A DNA stretch of 64,000 bases from a virus. Below are positions 2,577 to 36,734 of this stretch, one piece after another; position 1 is the first letter of the stretch; each line of letters starts with the position of its first letter. Both the position numbers and the translations under genes were made by a program. The stretch is taken from positions 21,551-85,550 of IMG/VR virus record IMGVR_UViG_3300040959_000745; one strand, given 5' to 3'. Under the pieces are notes generated by a model. That model made no database searches. It saw only the letters and a list, made by a program, of their open reading frames with translations, and was not told the DNA's origin.

Positions 2577-3863
2577 ATGAACTACTATAAGATAAAAAGA
2601 AAACAAGTAAAGCGTGATGCTGAAGAATCTTATTACTACGGCACTTCTATAGTATATAGGATGTATCCTAATAAGAAGCAGGAGGAGTGGTTAACTGAGA
2701 TAGGCAACAAATGTCGGGGAGCTTATAACAAACTGGTAGAAGAGTTCTGCCAAAATCCAGATAAACCCAGGAACTTACCTGGAACTTCTTTAAAGGAGAT
2801 TAATAGGCTTAGACATTATTTAAAAGAGTTTGACTGGTTAGATGATGTTCCTTCTATATTTTTGTATAATGTTTGTAATAATTTTATTAAAGGAGTTGAT
2901 AACTTTTATACTCAAATTAAAAAGAATAAAAAGATATTAGAGAAAGATCCTTATGCTACAGTTAGAAAAACAAGTCCCCCTAAAAAGAAAAAGTCTTATA
3001 GAGACCTGCATTTTGGGTCTAATAACTCAACTATAGAAAGAAGCACTGCTATTGACTATGACAACAATAGATATTATTGTTTTACGAAAACATTAAAAAG
3101 ATTAGGTATTAGTGATTCTTTTAAGATAAAATGTCACAAGAAGTTTTATAATAGCAAAATAAAAAGAGTTTCTTTTATGAGGGACAGTTCTATGTGTTGG
3201 TATGTGTCTTTTGGTTTGGAGCTTCCGCAAATAGATAGGTATGATAAAATTTATGTACCTAAAGATAATAGTTTAGGTATAGACTTGGGTGTAAAAACCG
3301 CAGCTACTACTTCTGATGGGGTAAAATTTCACCCTCCAGTAGAGCAGATAAAAAAGTTGGAGAAGAAGATAGATGTTTTAAATAAAGTTATTAGCAGGAA
3401 ACAAAGATTAGATAAAAAGAATTACTGGAAGAGTAATAACTATAGTAGGGTGTTGGAGAAGAAGTACAGAATACAGAAAAAGATAAATAACATAAGAGCT
3501 AATTATAACGAGTATGTATCTCATGTTCTTACCAAAGGAGAGTATAATAAGATTCAGATGGAAGATCTTAAGTTAAATTTTATGGTAGAAAAAAGGAAGA
3601 AGAAGTTTGGTATGAGTAGATCGGCAACTCGTTTAGGTTTGGGAAGTTTAACTAATAAGATAAAATCTAAATCTCAGGTAAGAGGTATAGAGTTTAATAA
3701 AATAAATCCTGCAAACACAACTAAGTATTGTAGTAATTGTGGACATATAGAGAACAGTTTAACTCTTAATACAAGAGAGTGGACGTGTCCTAGATGTGGT
3801 GTTGACCACGATAGAGATATAAATGCTGCAAAAAATATTCAAAAAAGTTTGGATATTAGATAA
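2577..3863 (+). CDS. Miniature type V CRISPR effector, Cas12f/TnpB-like RuvC nuclease
   Basis: 428 residues, the size of TnpB and of the smallest Cas12f proteins. The C-terminal half carries a split RuvC site: GIDLGVK (D236), QMEDLKLNF (E329) and DHDRDINAAKNI (D414). A four-cysteine zinc ribbon lies before the last block (CSNCG at 385-389, CPRCG at 404-408). The N-terminal half is the basic, helical RNA/DNA-binding region typical of OrfB_IS605 proteins. All catalytic residues are intact. No TnpA transposase lies beside it. A structured RNA with an anti-repeat and a CRISPR array follow on the same strand, so I infer an RNA-guided CRISPR nuclease rather than an insertion-sequence TnpB. No cas1, cas2 or cas4 is present. 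Subtype (V-F or V-U) needs a phylogeny. Confidence 0.85.
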   Translation: MNYYKIKRKQVKRDAEESYYYGTSIVYRMYPNKKQEEWLTEIGNKCRGAYNKLVEEFCQNPDKPRNLPGTSLKEINRLRHYLKEFDWLDDVPSIFLYNVCNNFIKGVDNFYTQIKKNKKILEKDPYATVRKTSPPKKKKSYRDLHFGSNNSTIERSTAIDYDNNRYYCFTKTLKRLGISDSFKIKCHKKFYNSKIKRVSFMRDSSMCWYVSFGLELPQIDRYDKIYVPKDNSLGIDLGVKTAATTSDGVKFHPPVEQIKKLEKKIDVLNKVISRKQRLDKKNYWKSNNYSRVLEKKYRIQKKINNIRANYNEYVSHVLTKGEYNKIQMEDLKLNFMVEKRKKKFGMSRSATRLGLGSLTNKIKSKSQVRGIEFNKINPANTTKYCSNCGHIENSLTLNTREWTCPRCGVDHDRDINAAKNIQKSLDIR

Positions 3864-3904
3864 AAGGTTTGTAGATTTACGATCTAAGTAAGTTCATTGA
3901 AATA

Positions 3905-4100
3905 ATCGCCCGTGTGTAGCGGGTTTAAAGGCTTGCAGATATAGCGTCAACCCCTTCTTTGCTACGCAAGTGGTAAAGTCGCTCAAAATCTTTCTTTAAA
4001 ATGAAAGCGAGAGGCCGAGAGGACGCTAGGCGGCTAATGTCGAAAGACATAACGTGTGAGAACACACGAAATATCTTTTAAATTGTAGCCTTTGTATAGT
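3905..4100 (+). ncRNA. Candidate tracrRNA (omegaRNA-like scaffold) with anti-repeat
   Basis: This gene-free stretch between the nuclease and the array is rich in hairpins. CCCG/CGGG pairs 3909-3912 with 3920-3923. A long-range 7-bp pair joins TAGCGTC 3942-3948 with GACGCTA 4022-4028. ATGTC-GAAA-GACAT spans 4037-4050, and CGTGTG-AGAA-CACACG spans 4053-4068. Right after the last hairpin, 4069-4088 is an anti-repeat to the 3' half of the CRISPR repeat: of 20 positions, 17 are Watson-Crick, 2 are G-U and 1 is mismatched. Scaffold hairpins followed by a 3' anti-repeat is the layout of Cas12f tracrRNA. A position just 3' of the nuclease gene is also that of TnpB omegaRNA. Ends are approximate. Confidence 0.75.
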
Positions 4101-4103
4101 TAG

Positions 4104-4774
4104 GGTGTATACCACCACAATTTGAAAGGTGTTTACAACTAATGTTAGACAAAAAAATAAGTATAGCTTGGTATATAGCACCACAGTTTGAAAGGTATTT
4201 ACAACGGAAACTTAGGTTACCTACTATCTGCTGAAGGTGTATACCACCACAGTTTGAAAGGTATTTACAACGAAAACTTAGGTTACCTACTATCTGCTGA
4301 AGGTGTATACCACCACATTTTGAAAGGTATTTACAACCAAATGAAGAACGATGCACAATAAGATGTAGGTGTATAGCACCACAATTTGAAAGGTGTTTAC
4401 AACAGATCTAAAAGAAGAAGCAGAAAAACTTTCAGTGTATACCACCACAATTTGAAAGGTATTTACAACTAGTACCTATAGTATCAAAGTTAAATCAGAG
4501 GTGTATACCACCACAGTTTGAAAGGTATTTACAACTTATGTTATGAAGGTAGTACTCCTTATATTGGTGTATACCACCACAATTTGAAAGGTATTTACAA
4601 ACGGTGTCTCTTTAGCATCATAATTTTAAAACTGTTTACAACATAGCGACATCAATGTCGTTACCATAGATGGCTGTATACCACCACAATTTTAAAACTG
4701 TTTACAACATAGCGACATCAATGTCGTTACCATAGATGGCTGTATACCACCACAATTTTAAAACTGTTTACAAC
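4104..4774 (+). CRISPR. CRISPR array: 10 full repeats plus one truncated, about 30-nt spacers
   Basis: Eight type-A repeats of 35-36 nt begin at 4105, 4171, 4237, 4303, 4369, 4435, 4501 and 4567, exactly 66 bp apart. They begin with the small hairpin GGTG-TATAC-CACC and end in GTATTTACAAC or GTGTTTACAAC. Two full type-B repeats (4673-4708, 4739-4774) and a 5'-truncated one (4622-4642) share the ends but differ in the middle (TTTTAAAACTG). Spacers are 30 nt, except the one at 4602-4621, which is shortened. The last base of the 4567 repeat is A instead of C. The 3' ACAAC end and the adjacent anti-repeat set the crRNA direction as plus, with the repeat 5' of the spacer. No spacer matched elsewhere in the window by eye. 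Confidence 0.93.
4643..4774 (+). repeat. Perfect 66-bp tandem duplication of spacer plus type-B repeat
   Basis: 4643-4708 and 4709-4774 are identical. The duplicated spacer contains the inverted repeat CGACAT-CA-ATGTCG. It marks growth of the array by recombination rather than by spacer acquisition. Confidence 0.9.
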
Positions 4775-21015: not shown

Positions 21016-21031
21016 TTTTTTTCAAAAAAGT

Positions 21032-21061
21032 TTGCGGAGAAGAAATAAAAAACTATATTTG
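21032..21061 (+). promoter_or_regulatory. Bacteroidota-type promoter
   Basis: TTG(CGG) 21032-21034 and TATATTTG 21054-21061, 19-bp spacer. The same sequence recurs almost unchanged at 22492, 23461, 24518 and 25551. Confidence 0.75.
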
Positions 21062-21091
21062 CAGAACATTAATCATTAAAACATAACAAAC

Positions 21092-21496
21092 ATGAACAAT
21101 TACGATTTCTTTTTATTCACAAAACTAGTGGATGTAAGATTCCCCAACAATAAGGATTCTTACGATGAGTTGTACGATACCTTATCTATGGCTTATAACT
21201 CTTTTCTATCAAGTAAGTATAACGACTTTGATAAAGGAGTTTATGAGTGTATAGAAGAATACTTGGAAGATGAGGACTTACCATTCAGACAATGTACAAA
21301 GACTGGTAGTTACATTGTAGAGGGGTATATGGTCAATCACAATTTAATGTCGTACGGAGATATCGAATACTATGCTTCAGAAGAAGATTTAGTAGAAAGA
21401 TTGAAGGAAACTTATCCTGAAATTTCAGATAAGGAAGAACTACTGGCTACTGCCTATGAAGATGAGTATTACTGTTGGACACAATTTAATAATTAA
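21092..21496 (+). CDS. Hypothetical acidic protein
   Basis: 134 residues, first of four genes in a unit (21092-22221). Tyr- and acid-rich with CIEEYLEDEDLPFRQCTKTG. No recognisable domain. The very acidic character is shared with most products of the 18-28 kb region and may reflect DNA mimicry or host-protein binding, which is speculation. Confidence 0.6.
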   Translation: MNNYDFFLFTKLVDVRFPNNKDSYDELYDTLSMAYNSFLSSKYNDFDKGVYECIEEYLEDEDLPFRQCTKTGSYIVEGYMVNHNLMSYGDIEYYASEEDLVERLKETYPEISDKEELLATAYEDEYYCWTQFNN

Positions 21497-21514
21497 CTTT
21501 AAACTAAAACTATT

Positions 21515-21709
21515 ATGGAAGATTTCAAATTAATCAATGTACTGGAACTGGCTTCTGAACTAGCAGATATGAAAGTTAGAGAAATTATGGTAAACTTTTC
21601 AGATATTTACATTGAAGATAGTGATGGAAGTACAAGGTATACTGAAGAGGCTCAAGACCTATTTAACGAGTGGTACGATTCCTACACTGAACTAATACAA
21701 TCTATTTAA
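21515..21709 (+). CDS. Small hypothetical acidic protein
   Basis: 64 residues, helical, starting MEDFKLINVLELASELADMK. Its 5' flank (AACTTTAAACTAAAACTATT) is repeated before the next gene, so the two genes share a translation-initiation context. Function unknown. Confidence 0.55.
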   Translation: MEDFKLINVLELASELADMKVREIMVNFSDIYIEDSDGSTRYTEEAQDLFNEWYDSYTELIQSI

Positions 21710-21727
21710 CTTTAAACTAAAACTATT

Positions 21728-21973
21728 ATGGACAAATTACTTAAATCTGAAATTGACAAAGCAAAAAAACTTTTAAAAGACAATGGCTACCAAACGTATA
21801 ACTTGTGGCACATTGACGATGTATTGGATGAAGAAGGGCTTTTAGAGGATGGCGATAAGATGGAGATACTGGAAGAAGCACTCACAAATGAATGGGTTAT
21901 AGAACAAATTTTTTTTATTATAAACGACATTAGAGATAGGTATATTGAAGAAGTTAAAAACAAAAAAGCATGA
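21728..21973 (+). CDS. Hypothetical acidic protein
   Basis: 81 residues, helical. Its 5' flank matches that of the preceding gene. The C terminus overlaps the next gene by ATGA. No domain recognised. Confidence 0.55.
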   Translation: MDKLLKSEIDKAKKLLKDNGYQTYNLWHIDDVLDEEGLLEDGDKMEILEEALTNEWVIEQIFFIINDIRDRYIEEVKNKKA

Positions 21974-22221
21974 GAAGGAAGTATTTAAATAGAGTAACAG
22001 AAAGTGATTTTATAAACTGGTACTTTAGCGATTCAGAAGACTTGACCGAATTTGCAAAAGGTATTATTGATGAACTGGCAGAGACTGGTAAATGTAACTT
22101 GACTGTAAAGAAAGTATTTGATAACTGTGGGTATATACCCTCACACATTTGCGAGTCTAAACTGGATGGGGAAGAATACCAACCGCACGAAGTTAGACTG
22201 GTAAAAGATATTTCTAATTAA
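21970..22221 (+). CDS. Hypothetical protein
   Basis: 83 residues, MRRKYLNRVTESDFINWYFS, with three cysteines. Last gene of the unit and coupled by ATGA to the one before. No family recognised. Confidence 0.55.
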   Translation: MRRKYLNRVTESDFINWYFSDSEDLTEFAKGIIDELAETGKCNLTVKKVFDNCGYIPSHICESKLDGEEYQPHEVRLVKDISN

Positions 22222-22268
22222 AAGTAAAAAAGTTAGGGGAGAGTGTATAATAATTAAAAACTTTCCCC

Positions 22269-22276
22269 TATATTTG
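22269..22276 (+). promoter_or_regulatory. Promoter -7 box (TATATTTG), weak -33
   Basis: TATATTTG at 22269-22276 in the context TTTCCCCTATATTTGCAGAA, identical around the -7 box to the 20361 promoter. The -33 position reads TAT rather than TTG, so strength may differ. Confidence 0.5.
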
Positions 22277-22309
22277 CAGAACATTAATTAACCATAAAAA
22301 CTTAAAGTT

Positions 22310-22477
22310 ATGAAAGTAGCAAGACCCAAGACAGAAAAATGGCATAATGACCAAGAAGGTGATTGCAGAAAACCTATTGATAGAGATGGAAGTAAAAAAT
22401 CATATTATAAAAAAGGATGGTGGAAAAGATATGATAGAAAGAAGTTTTTCCGCAATATTAACAAGTGGTTTGGATAA
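22310..22477 (+). CDS. Small basic protein
   Basis: 55 residues, very basic, with YYKKGWWKRYDRKKFFRNIN. Its own promoter precedes it. The charge suggests nucleic-acid or ribosome binding, which is unproven. Confidence 0.55.
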   Translation: MKVARPKTEKWHNDQEGDCRKPIDRDGSKKSYYKKGWWKRYDRKKFFRNINKWFG

Positions 22478-22491
22478 TTACCGCTAAAAGT

Positions 22492-22521
22492 TTGCGGAGA
22501 AGAAATAAAAAACTATATTTG
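22492..22521 (+). promoter_or_regulatory. Bacteroidota-type promoter
   Basis: TTG(CGG) 22492-22494 and TATATTTG 22514-22521, 19-bp spacer. Confidence 0.75.
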
Positions 22522-22555
22522 CAGAACATTAATTAACAACTAAAAATTTAAAACT

Positions 22556-23215
22556 ATGCCAAACTGGTGTTCAAATTACGTAACGATTTACGGAGAAGAT
22601 TTCTCCAAAGTAAAAGATTTACTTTTAACTAAAACTGATGATGATGGTCTTTTCGAGCATACTGTAGGTATTGTAAAGGAAGGCTATTTAAGAGATGAAA
22701 AGTATAAAAATTTAGGAGAGGTTATGCTTGATAACAAATACTTTAACTGGTACGACCACAACATAAACGAGTATGGTACAAAGTGGGATGTTAATGAGAT
22801 TTCATTTGATGTTTTTGCCGACCCATCTGATGAGCATATTTCCTTTAGTTTTGAGTCCGCTTGGTCTCCTCCTTTAGAATGGGCAAGAAAACTGTCAGAT
22901 AAGTTTAAAGTAATTGTGGTAATAGAGTATGCTGAAAATGGTTGTGATTTTGGAGGTAGGTCAATATTTGAGAATGGAGATGAAAAGGAATTTGCACAAT
23001 ACACATACCTTAACTGGATGTTAGTTGATGATACGAGTGGAACTAGGTTTATGGAGGAAATAGAGTACATAACATCTCATATGGACAAAGATGAGTTTGA
23101 AGAGTATAAGCAGGATATTATAGAGTCTGCTGAAGAACAGTTAGACTCTACTTTTGTAAAGACTGTTGTGGATGTATTTGATGAAATAGAAAAGAGTATG
23201 TTTGAAGAATCTTAA
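22556..23215 (+). CDS. Api92/DUF1281-like protein with ferredoxin-like domain
   Basis: 219 residues. Starts MPNWCSNYVTIYGED and contains YGTKWDVNEISFDVF, then FSFESAWSPPLEWARKLSDK. The MPNWC-N opening, GTKWD and AWSPP blocks are hallmarks of the Api92-like/YubB family found on plasmids and phages. The molecular function of that family is not established. The C-terminal 60 residues are an added acidic helical extension. Single-gene unit with promoter and terminator. Confidence 0.75.
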   Translation: MPNWCSNYVTIYGEDFSKVKDLLLTKTDDDGLFEHTVGIVKEGYLRDEKYKNLGEVMLDNKYFNWYDHNINEYGTKWDVNEISFDVFADPSDEHISFSFESAWSPPLEWARKLSDKFKVIVVIEYAENGCDFGGRSIFENGDEKEFAQYTYLNWMLVDDTSGTRFMEEIEYITSHMDKDEFEEYKQDIIESAEEQLDSTFVKTVVDVFDEIEKSMFEES

Positions 23216-23240
23216 TAGTAATAGGTTATGTTTTAGAGTG

Positions 23241-23273
23241 CCTCTCCCCCGCTTTTGGAGGAGGGGTTTTTTT
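23241..23273 (+). terminator. Intrinsic terminator
   Basis: CCTCTCC pairs with GGAGGGG within 23241-23266, followed by seven T. Confidence 0.8.
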
Positions 23274-23276
23274 GTG

Positions 23277-23318
23277 CTTATAAGGATGATCCGATATACC
23301 TACTAGTTTGCGTGTTGT
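23277..23318 (+). repeat. Bipartite intergenic element, copy 5
   Basis: CTTATAAGG, 21 bp, TTTGCGTGTTGT. The second box is changed in its last bases, but spacing is kept. Confidence 0.8.
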
Positions 23319-23340
23319 GTGAACTGGTTGAACGTATTTG

Positions 23341-23445
23341 TAAGTTTATTTTAAAGTTATTGTACATACTATATGTTTACTTTTAAGTTATTATATGTAT
23401 TATATGTTTACTGTAAAGTTATTCTGTTTACTTTTAATTTATTTT
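23341..23445. promoter_or_regulatory. Operator-like array, 31-bp phased
   Basis: GTTTA-type units with AAGTTATT follow each other at 31-bp steps (equivalent points 23341, 23372, 23403), and a last unit runs into the promoter. Confidence 0.55.
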
Positions 23446-23460
23446 TTTTTGTAGAAAAGT

Positions 23461-23490
23461 TTGCGGAGAAGAAACAAAAAACTATATTTG
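23461..23490 (+). promoter_or_regulatory. Bacteroidota-type promoter
   Basis: TTG(CGG) 23461-23463 and TATATTTG 23483-23490, 19-bp spacer. Confidence 0.75.
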
Positions 23491-23523
23491 CAGAACATTA
23501 ATCAACATTAAAAACTTAAAGTT

Positions 23524-23802
23524 ATGGAAACTTACAAAAAGATTGGTAATTACACATTCAAGTTAACATCAAAATACAATATTGGTGATGAAATTTTTTA
23601 TCAGAATATGAAATGGAGTTATAAAGATGAGAAAAATATCATTACAAAAGAAAAGGCAAAAATAGTTGATATGTATGATTATGGTAATAAAAATTGGGGA
23701 ACACTAAATGTTAGAGTTATACCTGAAAGAAAAGAATTGTGGGATAAGGATGGTGGTAGGTGGATTAGTGAAAATGATATTATTTCAAAGGTGGGTGGGT
23801 AA
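23524..23802 (+). CDS. Hypothetical protein
   Basis: 92 residues, beta-rich and Trp-containing (IGDEIFYQNMKWSYKDEKNI, GNKNWGTLNVRVIPERKELW). It looks like a small beta-barrel. First gene of a two-gene unit. No family recognised. Confidence 0.6.
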   Translation: METYKKIGNYTFKLTSKYNIGDEIFYQNMKWSYKDEKNIITKEKAKIVDMYDYGNKNWGTLNVRVIPERKELWDKDGGRWISENDIISKVGG

Positions 23803-23811
23803 AAATTATTG

Positions 23812-23842
23812 CACATAACTATTTGTTAACCCAAGTTTAAAC
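23812..23842 (+). repeat. Recurring intergenic module copy (outlier position)
   Basis: CACATAACTATTTGTTAACC then CAAGTTTAAAC. This is the same module as between 8 and 13.5 kb, here inside the promoter-rich region and just upstream of the secreted-protein gene. Confidence 0.6.
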
Positions 23843-23851
23843 TTAATACCA

Positions 23852-24244
23852 ATGAAACTAACATTCAGTATTTTAATTATCTTTATATCTTTAACTGTAC
23901 ATTCACAGTCCAGAAGATTCACTTTAGATAAAAGTAATTTAGCAACAGTACAAAGTAACAATATTAATCAACCAACAAAACAATCTACTATGAAGTTATT
24001 CATCGCAATCGAAGAAGGAAGGAACCTACGTTCCAGATTCATTACAAGCTTGGAAATTATTGCTAGAAATGAAATTGAAGCTAGAAAAATTATCAGAGAG
24101 TATAATCGTTATGTATTTGATAATAAGTTAAAAGTAAAAGAATTGAACAGACCTATCATTTGTGAAGTAACTATGACTGGTGCATTTGAACACCATAAGA
24201 ACTCTACTAGAGGGTTTTATAACCCTACTACAGAAGTACAGTAA
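23852..24244 (+). CDS. Hypothetical secreted protein
   Basis: 130 residues with signal peptide MKLTFSILIIFISLTVHSQS. The mature part is helical and basic (IEARKIIREYNRYVFDNKLK). An internal ATG (MKLFIAIEEGRN, codon 47) could give a cytoplasmic form of 84 residues. No family recognised. Confidence 0.55.
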   Translation: MKLTFSILIIFISLTVHSQSRRFTLDKSNLATVQSNNINQPTKQSTMKLFIAIEEGRNLRSRFITSLEIIARNEIEARKIIREYNRYVFDNKLKVKELNRPIICEVTMTGAFEHHKNSTRGFYNPTTEVQ

Positions 24245-24268
24245 AGATATATTCACTCACTCTGTATA

Positions 24269-24302
24269 AAGGTGCTACATTAATTTGTAGTGCCTTTTTT
24301 TA
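24269..24302 (+). terminator. Intrinsic terminator
   Basis: AAAGGTGCTACA and TGTAGTGCCTTT pair around the loop TTAATT, and T residues follow. The ACATTAATTTGT centre recurs in the terminators at 26191, 27741 and 28491. Confidence 0.75.
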
Positions 24303-24304
24303 TG

Positions 24305-24346
24305 CTTATAAGGATGATCCTTTATACCTATTAGTTTGCGTGTTTG
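24305..24346 (+). repeat. Bipartite intergenic element, copy 6
   Basis: CTTATAAGG, 21 bp, TTTGCGTGTTTG, immediately after a terminator. Confidence 0.85.
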
Positions 24347-24366
24347 ATGAAGTGACCAGTCAGTAT

Positions 24367-24510
24367 ATATGTTTATTGTAAAGTTATTCTGTATACTATA
24401 TGTTTACTTTTAAGTTATTCTGTATACTATATGTTTACTTTTAAGTTATTCTGTATACTATATGTTTACTTTTAAGTTATTCTGTATACTTTTAAGTTAT
24501 TTTTTTTGCA
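24367..24510. promoter_or_regulatory. Four exact-phase 31-bp tandem operator-like repeats
   Basis: Units start at 24367, 24398, 24429 and 24460. The last three are identical and the first differs at a few bases. Each contains ATATGTTTACTTTTAAGTTA and TTCTGTATACT. A partial fifth unit (TTTAAGTTATT) leads into the T-tract upstream of the promoter. 31 bp is close to three helical turns, so a bound protein would occupy one face. Confidence 0.75.
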
Positions 24511-24517
24511 GAAAAGT

Positions 24518-24547
24518 TTGCGGTGATGAAATAAAAAACTATATTTG
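24518..24547 (+). promoter_or_regulatory. Bacteroidota-type promoter
   Basis: TTG(CGG) 24518-24520 and TATATTTG 24540-24547, 19-bp spacer. Confidence 0.75.
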
Positions 24548-24578
24548 CAGAACATTAATCATTCTAAAACAACACAAT

Positions 24579-25301
24579 ATGAAAAGTTTAACGTTTTTAT
24601 CAGCCAATCAAAAAGTTGTAAATGTCATTGCATTAAATAAAACTAAAAATGGCAAAATAACTACACCGAATAAATTAATACTACAAACCTATCACTTTGA
24701 TATTGAGCAAATAAATTTTGCCAAACAAGGTGGTAAAGGTATTAATTTAGATACTGGATTTCTTAATCCTAAATTAACTGAAAATAATTGTTTGAGCTGT
24801 CCTTTAAGATTTGGCGGTTGTTATACACATCACGGTATCCAGCCTGTAGGCCATTTATCTATGTTACGTAGATTGGCTAAATTAGATAAAATACCTCAAT
24901 ATTCTGTTGATACCATTAACCAATCTTTAGCAATGTTACAATTAACTACAAATAAATACATTAGGTTTGGCAGTTATGGGTGTCCAACAAATTTACCCTT
25001 TAATTTGGTACAATTATTAGCCGAAAATGCTAATAACTATACGGGATATACGCATGAATGGCACAATCCTAAAAACTACAAATATATGGCTTATTTTATG
25101 GCTTCTACTCACCAAAGTGACCCTATATTCAGTAGCAAATTAGCCAATGATTTGGGTTTTAGAACATTTGAGATAGACGGAAAAGTTAATACCGTCCAAT
25201 GTCCACATTCAACCAACAAAGATATTAAATGTGACAAATGTGGTTTATGTAGCGGATATAAAGGTAAAGGAAAAACAAATATAGGTATCCCAAAACACTA
25301 G
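24579..25301 (+). CDS. Cysteine-rich Gp88-like phage protein
   Basis: 240 residues from the ATG at 24579. The frame is open 117 bp further up, but that stretch contains the promoter. It has NNCLSCPLRFGGCYTHHG, then IRFGSYGCPTNLPFNLVQLL and, at the end, VQCPHSTNKDIKCDKCGLC. Clustered Cys/His and this block order match the Gp88-like proteins of phages and plasmids, possibly metal-binding. Function of the family is unknown. Single-gene unit. Confidence 0.6.
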   Translation: MKSLTFLSANQKVVNVIALNKTKNGKITTPNKLILQTYHFDIEQINFAKQGGKGINLDTGFLNPKLTENNCLSCPLRFGGCYTHHGIQPVGHLSMLRRLAKLDKIPQYSVDTINQSLAMLQLTTNKYIRFGSYGCPTNLPFNLVQLLAENANNYTGYTHEWHNPKNYKYMAYFMASTHQSDPIFSSKLANDLGFRTFEIDGKVNTVQCPHSTNKDIKCDKCGLCSGYKGKGKTNIGIPKH

Positions 25302-25323
25302 GTTTAGATTGATTAATTAGTTT

Positions 25324-25357
25324 AACGGCCTGGCAATAAGTTAGGCCGTTTTTTTTA
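25324..25357 (+). terminator. Intrinsic terminator
   Basis: AACGGCCT (25324-25331) and AGGCCGTT (25343-25350) pair perfectly, with a T-run after. Confidence 0.85.
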
Positions 25358-25359
25358 TG

Positions 25360-25401
25360 CTTATAAGGATGATCCTTTATACCTATTTATTTGCGTGTTT
25401 G
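25360..25401 (+). repeat. Bipartite intergenic element, copy 7
   Basis: CTTATAAGG, 21 bp, TTTGCGTGTTTG, after a terminator. Confidence 0.85.
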
Positions 25402-25421
25402 ATTAATTACTAATTAGTGTT

Positions 25422-25545
25422 TATGTTTACTTTTAAGTTATTATACACACTATATGTTTATTGTAAAGTTATTCTATATAGTATATGTTTACTTTTAAGT
25501 TATTCTATATAGTATATGTTTACTTTTAAGTTATTTTTTTCTAGA
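25422..25545. promoter_or_regulatory. Operator-like array, four 31-bp units
   Basis: TATGTTTA begins at 25422, 25453, 25484 and 25515, each followed by AAGTTATT. Phasing is exactly 31 bp as at 24367. Confidence 0.7.
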
Positions 25546-25550
25546 AAATT

Positions 25551-25580
25551 TTGCGGTGATGAAATAAAAAACTATATTTG
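25551..25580 (+). promoter_or_regulatory. Bacteroidota-type promoter
   Basis: TTG(CGG) 25551-25553 and TATATTTG 25573-25580, 19-bp spacer. Confidence 0.75.
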
Positions 25581-36119: not shown

Positions 36120-36734
36120 ATGAAAAAACACATATTACAATTTTTTAAATTTTTAAAAGATAAGGAAGGTAAATCAGCTCCCTTAAAACTCAAGCTCTTA
36201 GACCCACAAACTTTTGGTAAACCCACAAAAAATCAGTTAAATGTAAAAGGTGACTTAAATTTAAGTAAGACAAATATAAAGGAACTACCTCAAGGACTAC
36301 AGGTGAGTGGGGATTTAGATTTAAGCGGTTGCACATCTCTTACAAAACTTCTACAAGGACTACAGGTGGGTGGGAGTTTAGATTTACAAGGCTGTACTTC
36401 TCTAAAAGAACTACCTCAAGACCTTAAGGTGGGTGACGGTATAAATTTAATGGATTGCACATCTCTTAAAGAATTACCACAAGACCTTTATGTGGGTGAA
36501 GATTTAGATTTAGAAGGTTGCACATCGCTTAAAGAACTCCCACAAGGACTACAGGTGGGTTGGAGTTTAAATTTAATGGATTGCACATCTTTAAAAGAAC
36601 TTCCACAAGGTCTTAAGGTGATTGATAATTTATGGTTAGTAAACACACCTATAGCAGATAAATACTCAAAAGAAGAGATAAAAAAGATGATAGAAGATGG
36701 GGGAGGATTTGTTGAAGGTGAAATTAATGTATAA
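36120..36734 (+). CDS. Leucine-rich-repeat protein
   Basis: 204 residues with six to seven near-identical 20-23-residue repeats of the form CTSLKELPQGLQVGxSLDLx (residues about 40-175). These are short LRRs like those of bacterial effectors. N-terminal helix MKKHILQFFKFLKDKEG is shared with the next gene. There is no clean (L/I)xE leader. Probably a binding scaffold. It shares a 1-bp stop/start overlap (TAATG) with the following paralogue. Confidence 0.7.
   Translation: MKKHILQFFKFLKDKEGKSAPLKLKLLDPQTFGKPTKNQLNVKGDLNLSKTNIKELPQGLQVSGDLDLSGCTSLTKLLQGLQVGGSLDLQGCTSLKELPQDLKVGDGINLMDCTSLKELPQDLYVGEDLDLEGCTSLKELPQGLQVGWSLNLMDCTSLKELPQGLKVIDNLWLVNTPIADKYSKEEIKKMIEDGGGFVEGEINV

What the first reader, a model, noticed from the sequence alone, without database searches (positions are those of the whole stretch)
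2577..4774. Self-contained miniature type V CRISPR system in a phage: TnpB-sized nuclease, tracr-like RNA and array
Seen: a 428-residue protein with intact RuvC residues (D236, E329, D414) and a zinc ribbon, then a hairpin-rich RNA with an anti-repeat, then at least ten CRISPR repeats at an exact 66-bp period, all on one strand within 2.2 kb. Known: TnpB uses an omegaRNA from its own 3' side, and Cas12f uses a tracrRNA with a 3' anti-repeat. Inference: this locus looks intermediate between TnpB and Cas12f and is carried by a phage without cas1, cas2 or cas4, probably against rival mobile elements or the host.
Basis: partly seen in the sequence, partly recalled or inferred. Interest (0 to 1): 0.95.

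Follow-up and report, generated by a model that had tools for sequence, protein, structure and literature searches.

The report
Phage-borne mini CRISPR with TnpB-like nuclease
A bacteriophage of Bacteroidota-type bacteria carries, in 2.2 kb, a very small DNA-cutting enzyme, its helper RNA and a bank of eight distinct guides; comparison with a second, only distantly related phage shows the parts evolved together, so it looks like a real miniature CRISPR system near the split between transposon nucleases (TnpB) and Cas12f.

Summary
Window 2577-3863 encodes an intact 428-aa TnpB/Cas12f-family nuclease. 3' of it lie a structured RNA (about 3886-4103) and a CRISPR array (4104-4774) of ten 36-nt repeats plus one truncated copy. 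The RNA holds an 18-bp uninterrupted anti-repeat (0 of 1000 shuffles). A second phage lineage (IMG/VR, contigs up to 309 kb) has a 42%-identical nuclease, the same layout and a homologous scaffold: 21 of 21 chosen RNA pairs hold in both, 10 with changes on both sides, two of them in the anti-repeat/repeat helix. A Bacteroidota-type promoter overlaps the nuclease stop codon in four related loci. No Cas1, Cas2 or TnpA was found, and no protospacer. In trees of the RuvC/zinc region the two nucleases form their own branch on the Cas12f side of all sampled TnpBs, with moderate support (95/68); the AlphaFold fold is closest to TnpB. Phage-borne TnpB-like nucleases next to arrays are already published, and I found more, including in cultured Lactobacillus phages. 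So: an apparently intact new variant of a known kind (compact type V, V-U/V-F border). Targets, cleavage and 'transitional' status remain unshown.

The parts
2577..3863 (+). TnpB/Cas12f-family RNA-guided nuclease, 428 aa; RuvC D236/E329/D414, zinc C385/C388/C404/C407
   Evidence: AlphaFold pLDDT 88 and Foldseek best hits to TnpB
3848..3879 (+). Bacteroidota-type promoter TTTG-N20-TAGATTTA overlapping the nuclease stop; predicted start of the scaffold/array transcript about 3886 (inferred)
   Evidence: same motif with N20 at the stop codon in L014, L202 and L283; chance about 0.03 per locus
3891..3900 (+). boxA-like antitermination leader AGTTCATTGA (similar leader in L014, L202, L283)
   Evidence: boxA upstream of CRISPR arrays: PMC7862264
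3886..4103 (+). tracr/omega-like scaffold RNA (limits inferred)
   Evidence: (z -2.3 to -2.6)
3909..3923 (+). scaffold hairpin 1, loop GUGUA shared with L014, two compensatory pairs
4027..4036 (+). scaffold motif TAGGCGGCTA identical in L014
4037..4050 (+). scaffold hairpin 2, three pairs counted, two with changes on both sides
4053..4068 (+). scaffold hairpin 3, loop AGAA shared with L014, four of six pairs compensatory
4069..4086 (+). anti-repeat AAATATCTTTTAAATTGT, 18-bp helix with the repeats
4104..4774 (+). CRISPR array: ten full 36-nt repeats plus one truncated (4622-4642), 30-nt spacers, eight distinct

Best explanation
It is a compact, adaptation-less type V CRISPR effector module of a Bacteroidota phage (a myovirus by its baseplate protein). 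The nuclease is made from an upstream message. A separate promoter overlapping its stop codon starts a non-coding transcript that runs through a boxA-like leader, the scaffold RNA, the anti-repeat and the whole array. The first repeat lies 17 nt after the anti-repeat, so the transcript can fold in cis as a natural single guide carrying spacer 1. Cut array units (repeat plus 30-nt spacer) can pair with the same scaffold in trans as crRNA:tracrRNA, probably trimmed by host RNase III. The loaded nuclease recognises DNA matching a spacer beside a short motif and cuts it with its RuvC site. The phage most likely uses this against rival phages or plasmids in the same host. Shown by sequence: intact catalytic residues, anti-repeat, conserved RNA structure, conserved promoter position, static array. 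Inferred: transcription, processing, cleavage, target class.
For: Intact catalytic and zinc residues across 42% identity. Anti-repeat 18 bp, 0/1000 shuffles. Scaffold plus anti-repeat/repeat helix: 21/21 pairs kept in window and L014, 10 with both sides changed; slid controls at most 2. Scaffold model finds only these two full scaffolds in 388 kb searched; lower hits lie mostly on repeats. Promoter at the stop codon in four loci. Repeats 24-30/36 identical among window, L014, L202, L283, L255, so repeat sequence is constrained alongside type V nucleases. No Cas1, Cas2, TnpA or phage RNase III. Array identical in four metagenomes for L014 and changed in the window only by unit duplication, decay and a deletion.
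Against: No protospacer for any spacer. Distal array decayed and partly duplicated. No expression data. The paired columns were chosen after looking at the two sequences, and only two scaffolds exist for the covariation test. In L014 the anti-repeat is interrupted and not significant by itself.
Confidence: 0.72

Rival explanations
1. A selfish retention or homing device: the TnpB-like nuclease and its guides mainly cut sister phages that lack the cassette, favouring spread of the cassette, as TnpB does for insertion sequences and homing endonucleases do in phages.
For: Profile and fold closest to TnpB; single copy per genome; the two phages share core genes but the locus sits among different genes.
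Against: No TnpA; eight different guides instead of one guide from the element's flank; no spacer matches its own or the related phage genomes.
Confidence: 0.15
2. The guides act on the host: cutting or silencing host genes or host defence islands during infection.
For: No phage or plasmid target found; type V effectors can silence by binding (V-M and others, PMC12669027).
Against: The RuvC triad is intact, so cutting rather than binding only is expected; host genomes could not be searched with the spacers here.
Confidence: 0.2
3. A decaying or non-functional remnant: a TnpB gene beside an orphan array with no current function.
For: Distal repeats have 5 of 36 changes, one unit is truncated, two units are duplicated; no protospacers.
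Against: Open frame with all catalytic residues; compensatory RNA changes between two lineages; conserved promoter and leader; array kept unchanged in four metagenomes in the L014 phage.
Confidence: 0.1
4. An ordinary IS200/IS605 TnpB that happens to lie next to repeats.
For: NCBIfam guided_TnpB 194 bits and phrog_506 'transposase' are the best family hits.
Against: Anti-repeat matched to the repeats and co-varying; no TnpA; separate promoter for the RNA; tree position outside sampled TnpBs.
Confidence: 0.04

Closest known systems
Type V-F Cas12f (Un1Cas12f1, AsCas12f, OsCas12f1; and the L283 phage Cas12f found here)
   Same: Size class, split RuvC plus TNB zinc domain, tracrRNA with anti-repeat, 36-nt repeats; window repeat 30/36 identical to that of L283; motifs IQMEDL and P-x-N-T-x-K-x-C-S-x-C-G
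   Different: Branches outside the Cas12f clade; keeps the TnpB-type HDRDxNAAKN motif; fold nearer TnpB (TMt 0.80 against about 0.61)
IS200/IS605 TnpB (ISDra2, ISFba1)
   Same: Fold, length, DRD and zinc motifs; RNA encoded on the 3' side
   Different: No TnpA, guides come from an array, separate tracr-like RNA and promoter, outside sampled TnpB clades
TranC (LaTranC, PDB 9jfo/9jfq), V-U4, V-U2 candidates
   Same: TnpB-like nuclease working with an array; LaTranC is the best CRISPR hit in PDB by sequence (5e-15)
   Different: Full-length similarity weak; LaTranC did not group with it (long branch); the TranC paper itself was not held, so guide anatomy was not compared
Phage-encoded TnpB-like nucleases beside CRISPR arrays in landfill viromes (PMC12607003: 401 and 433 aa; V-U4, Cas14j/k homologues)
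   Same: Same kind: viral, TnpB-sized, next to an array, no adaptation genes
   Different: There no tracr RNA, covariation or promoter was described in the text read; sequence relation to this locus not testable here

Membership tests
Type V-F (Cas12f) | Compact effector with RuvC triad and TNB zinc domain | tested here: met
Type V-F (Cas12f) | Effector falls inside the Cas12f clade | tested here: not met
   Cas12f refs plus L283 form a clade 100/98; L202 joins next (95/90); the window pair joins outside them (95/68)
Type V-F (Cas12f) | tracrRNA with anti-repeat plus CRISPR array | tested here: met
Type V-F (Cas12f) | Works as asymmetric dimer on T-rich PAM | not testable with these tools
   no protospacers; only a monomer model made
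IS200/IS605 TnpB | TnpB-family fold and motifs | tested here: met
IS200/IS605 TnpB | Nested among TnpBs in a tree | tested here: not met
   separate branch outside all sampled TnpBs in three trees (92; 92/89; 95/68), moderate support, sampling limited
IS200/IS605 TnpB | TnpA partner | tested here: not met
   No Y1 transposase in six records; records are fragments
IS200/IS605 TnpB | Transposon ends bounding the element | not tested
   no empty site available
IS200/IS605 TnpB | Single guide taken from the element's right flank | tested here: not met
   Guides are array spacers with repeats complementary to the scaffold
TranC | Specific relation to LaTranC | tested here: inconclusive
   E 5e-15 over 136 aa; not grouped in tree, long branch
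TranC | Uses both a fused (reRNA-like) and a split guide | not testable with these tools
   anatomy permits it: first repeat 17 nt after the anti-repeat
V-U4 | Best profile match to Cas12u4 | tested here: inconclusive
   Cas12u4 110 bits against Cas12f PDLC01691 118 bits; plain TnpBs score higher on both
Functional CRISPR-Cas immunity | Spacers match mobile elements | tested here: not met
   none found in the collections searched
Functional CRISPR-Cas immunity | Adaptation genes in cis | tested here: not met
   No Cas1 or Cas2; Cas4 not tested; usual absence in viral systems per PMC12607003

The most novel reading that the evidence does not exclude
The window and L014 nucleases, with the L202 nuclease, are surviving stem lineages of Cas12f kept in large Bacteroidota phages: an intermediate in which a TnpB-type enzyme already uses a split tracr:crRNA guide and an array, while the first repeat still follows the scaffold in cis as in an omega RNA. 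The transition from transposon nuclease to Cas12f would then have happened, or been preserved, in phages.
Probability: 0.25. Interest if true: 0.87.

Novelty: new variant of a known kind. Interest (0 to 1): 0.63.

Why it matters
If active, this is an RNA-guided nuclease unit with a 428-aa enzyme and with scaffold and repeats already defined by covariation. It sits where TnpB gives way to Cas12f, so the order of events (array gain, guide splitting, enzyme change) can be tested on a real series: window and L014, L202, L283. The near-identical repeats next to nucleases from different branches (L255 among TnpBs, L283 in Cas12f) suggest that phage arrays are shared, swapped or converge on one repeat, which is also testable.

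Tried and rejected
Single-protein search of IMG/VR found only the same virus; alignment searches were needed. L017 and L046 (40% and 37% over the C-terminal half) are plain TnpBs without arrays. Spacer 5 matches Bacteroides phage DAC16 30/33 and Aeromonas phages 24/26, but it is a purine-rich lysine/glutamate-codon-like stretch with E 0.02 at best, and I do not count it. RNAduplex energy was not significant for the anti-repeat; the contiguous-helix test is the sharper one. Rfam gave no match. The scaffold model does not extend to L202, L255 or L283: lower hits lie mostly on repeats or are weak. Papers PMC10691335 and PMC12171694 are not held.

Full report
CHECK. The reported parts are all present. 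ORF 2577-3863 gives a 428-aa protein with Cas12f1-like_TNB, OrfB_IS605 and HTH_OrfB_IS605 domains above Pfam cut-offs. The triad D236/E329/D414 and C385/C388/C404 are invariant over 40 relatives. The array holds eight full repeats at exactly 66 nt, a truncated unit and two divergent units. The RNA between them contains an 18-bp anti-repeat at 4069-4086; none of 1000 dinucleotide shuffles gives a helix as good. The window lies in an 85,550-base virus record. A 102-kb IMG/VR contig with the same locus is the same virus: identical over the 8,860 bases compared and overlapping G000 over about 33 kb at 99.99-100%. The phage has a T4-type baseplate wedge protein. The Bacteroidota promoter motif TTTG-N19-21-TAnnTTT(G/A) occurs 16 times in the window against 6 expected, which points to a Bacteroidota host; the consensus TAnnTTTG is given in PMC10309648.

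A SECOND, INDEPENDENT LOCUS. An alignment search found L014 (same locus as L174-L177 in four metagenomes; longest contig 309 kb) with a nuclease 42% identical end to end. It has the same layout: nuclease, about 215-nt scaffold, repeats GTTGGGAATCATCACAATTTGAAAGGTAGTTACAAC at a 65-66-nt period. The two phages share no DNA similarity, only about 25-30 distant proteins. The scaffold RNAs are homologous. For a structure written by hand (three hairpins plus the anti-repeat/first-repeat helix) all 21 pairs are standard in both sequences and 10 have both bases changed; slid controls give 0-2. Two of the ten lie in the anti-repeat/repeat helix itself. This is the strongest evidence that nuclease, RNA and array work together. 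Caution: two sequences only, and the pairs were chosen by eye.

CONTROL REGION. In window, L014, L202 and L283 a promoter motif with a 20-nt spacer overlaps the nuclease stop codon; the chance per locus is about 0.03. A boxA-like sequence follows about 40 nt later (found by the pattern in window, L014 and L202; GTTCTTTAACATATTGG read in L283). boxA before CRISPR arrays is known to help transcription of long arrays (PMC7862264). Hence the scaffold and array are probably one separate transcript.

RELATIVES AND PLACE IN THE FAMILY. A repeat-pair scan of IMG/VR and the protein searches gave further phage loci with very similar repeats: L202 (325-kb phage, 531-aa nuclease, 7 repeats), L283 (438-aa Cas12f, repeat 30/36 identical to the window's) and L255 (415-aa TnpB-like). 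Trees of the RuvC/zinc region put window and L014 together (100/97-99 in the two careful trees). In one search Cas12f references plus L283 are a clade (100/98), L202 joins them (95/90), the window pair joins next (95/68), and sampled TnpBs lie outside. L255 falls among TnpBs, so association with this kind of array arose, or was acquired, more than once. The grade TnpB, window pair, L202, Cas12f is suggestive, but branches are long, other Cas12 subtypes were not included, and TnpBs were sampled by similarity. Profile scores are highest for TnpB families. The AlphaFold model (pLDDT 88, pTM 0.80) is closest to ISFba1 and ISDra2 TnpB, then Fanzor2 and AsCas12f.

MOBILITY AND ADAPTATION. No Cas1, Cas2 or Y1 TnpA was found in the records searched, and no phage RNase III, so any RNase III step would be the host's. 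All records may be fragments. The nuclease is single copy. The array is identical in four metagenomes for L014. In the window it shows unit duplication, decay and one deletion. Both fit a static array without acquisition.

TARGETS. No spacer matches the phage's own 85.5 kb above chance, the related phages or other held loci, annotated phages or plasmids convincingly, or IMG/VR for the exact cores of three spacers. The target class and any flanking motif are therefore unknown. I prefer rival mobile elements from the general behaviour of such systems, not from data here.

KNOWN OR NEW. The 2025 classification infers about 50 independent TnpB-CRISPR associations (PMC12669027), and landfill phages with 401- and 433-aa TnpBs beside arrays are published (PMC12607003). 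In the loci sampled here arrays also sit beside TnpBs in Lactobacillus phages Bromius and Bacchae and in L051 and L084. The kind is known. What is new is this lineage, its scaffold, its position near Cas12f, and the shared repeats and promoter arrangement among Bacteroidota-type phages.

Noticed in passing
L006:2284-2700 and L029:4187-4619 (Lactobacillus phages Bromius and Bacchae): Cultured Herelleviridae phages carry a 7-copy, about 66-nt-period CRISPR-like array directly 3' of a TnpB annotated as transposase/mobile element protein; some spacers differ between the two phages only by point changes.
   Followed up: partly
L051:2626-2931 and 4436-4734; L084:4105-4466: Other viral TnpB genes with 66-nt-period arrays, one flanked by arrays on both sides.
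   Followed up: partly
L202:4203-6490 (325-kb phage record): 531-aa TnpB/Cas12f-like nuclease, scaffold with 10-bp anti-repeat (1 of 1000 shuffles) and seven repeats; groups with Cas12f (95/90).
   Followed up: partly
L247, L249, L252-L254, L257, L259-L264, L272 and others: Viral contigs hold dispersed 2-4-copy mini-arrays with repeats such as GGTGTTACACCCTTCAATTTGTAAGTCTCCTCCAAC, several per genome, without a hit to these type V nucleases on the DNA held; effector unknown.
   Followed up: partly
L285:3402-6044: 388-kb phage record with a Cas6 gene beside a 13-repeat array, probably a class 1 system.
   Followed up: no
window 21031-25580: The promoter-like element TTTGCGGAGAAGAAATAAAAAACTATATTTG or a near-copy recurs five times (21031, 22491, 23460, 24517, 25550); 31-bp tandem repeats lie nearby (23344, 24366, 25422, 26301).
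   Followed up: no
window 36277-36610: 63-bp repeats inside ORF 36120-36734 encode a repetitive protein (about 21-aa repeats, leucine-rich-repeat-like).
   Followed up: no
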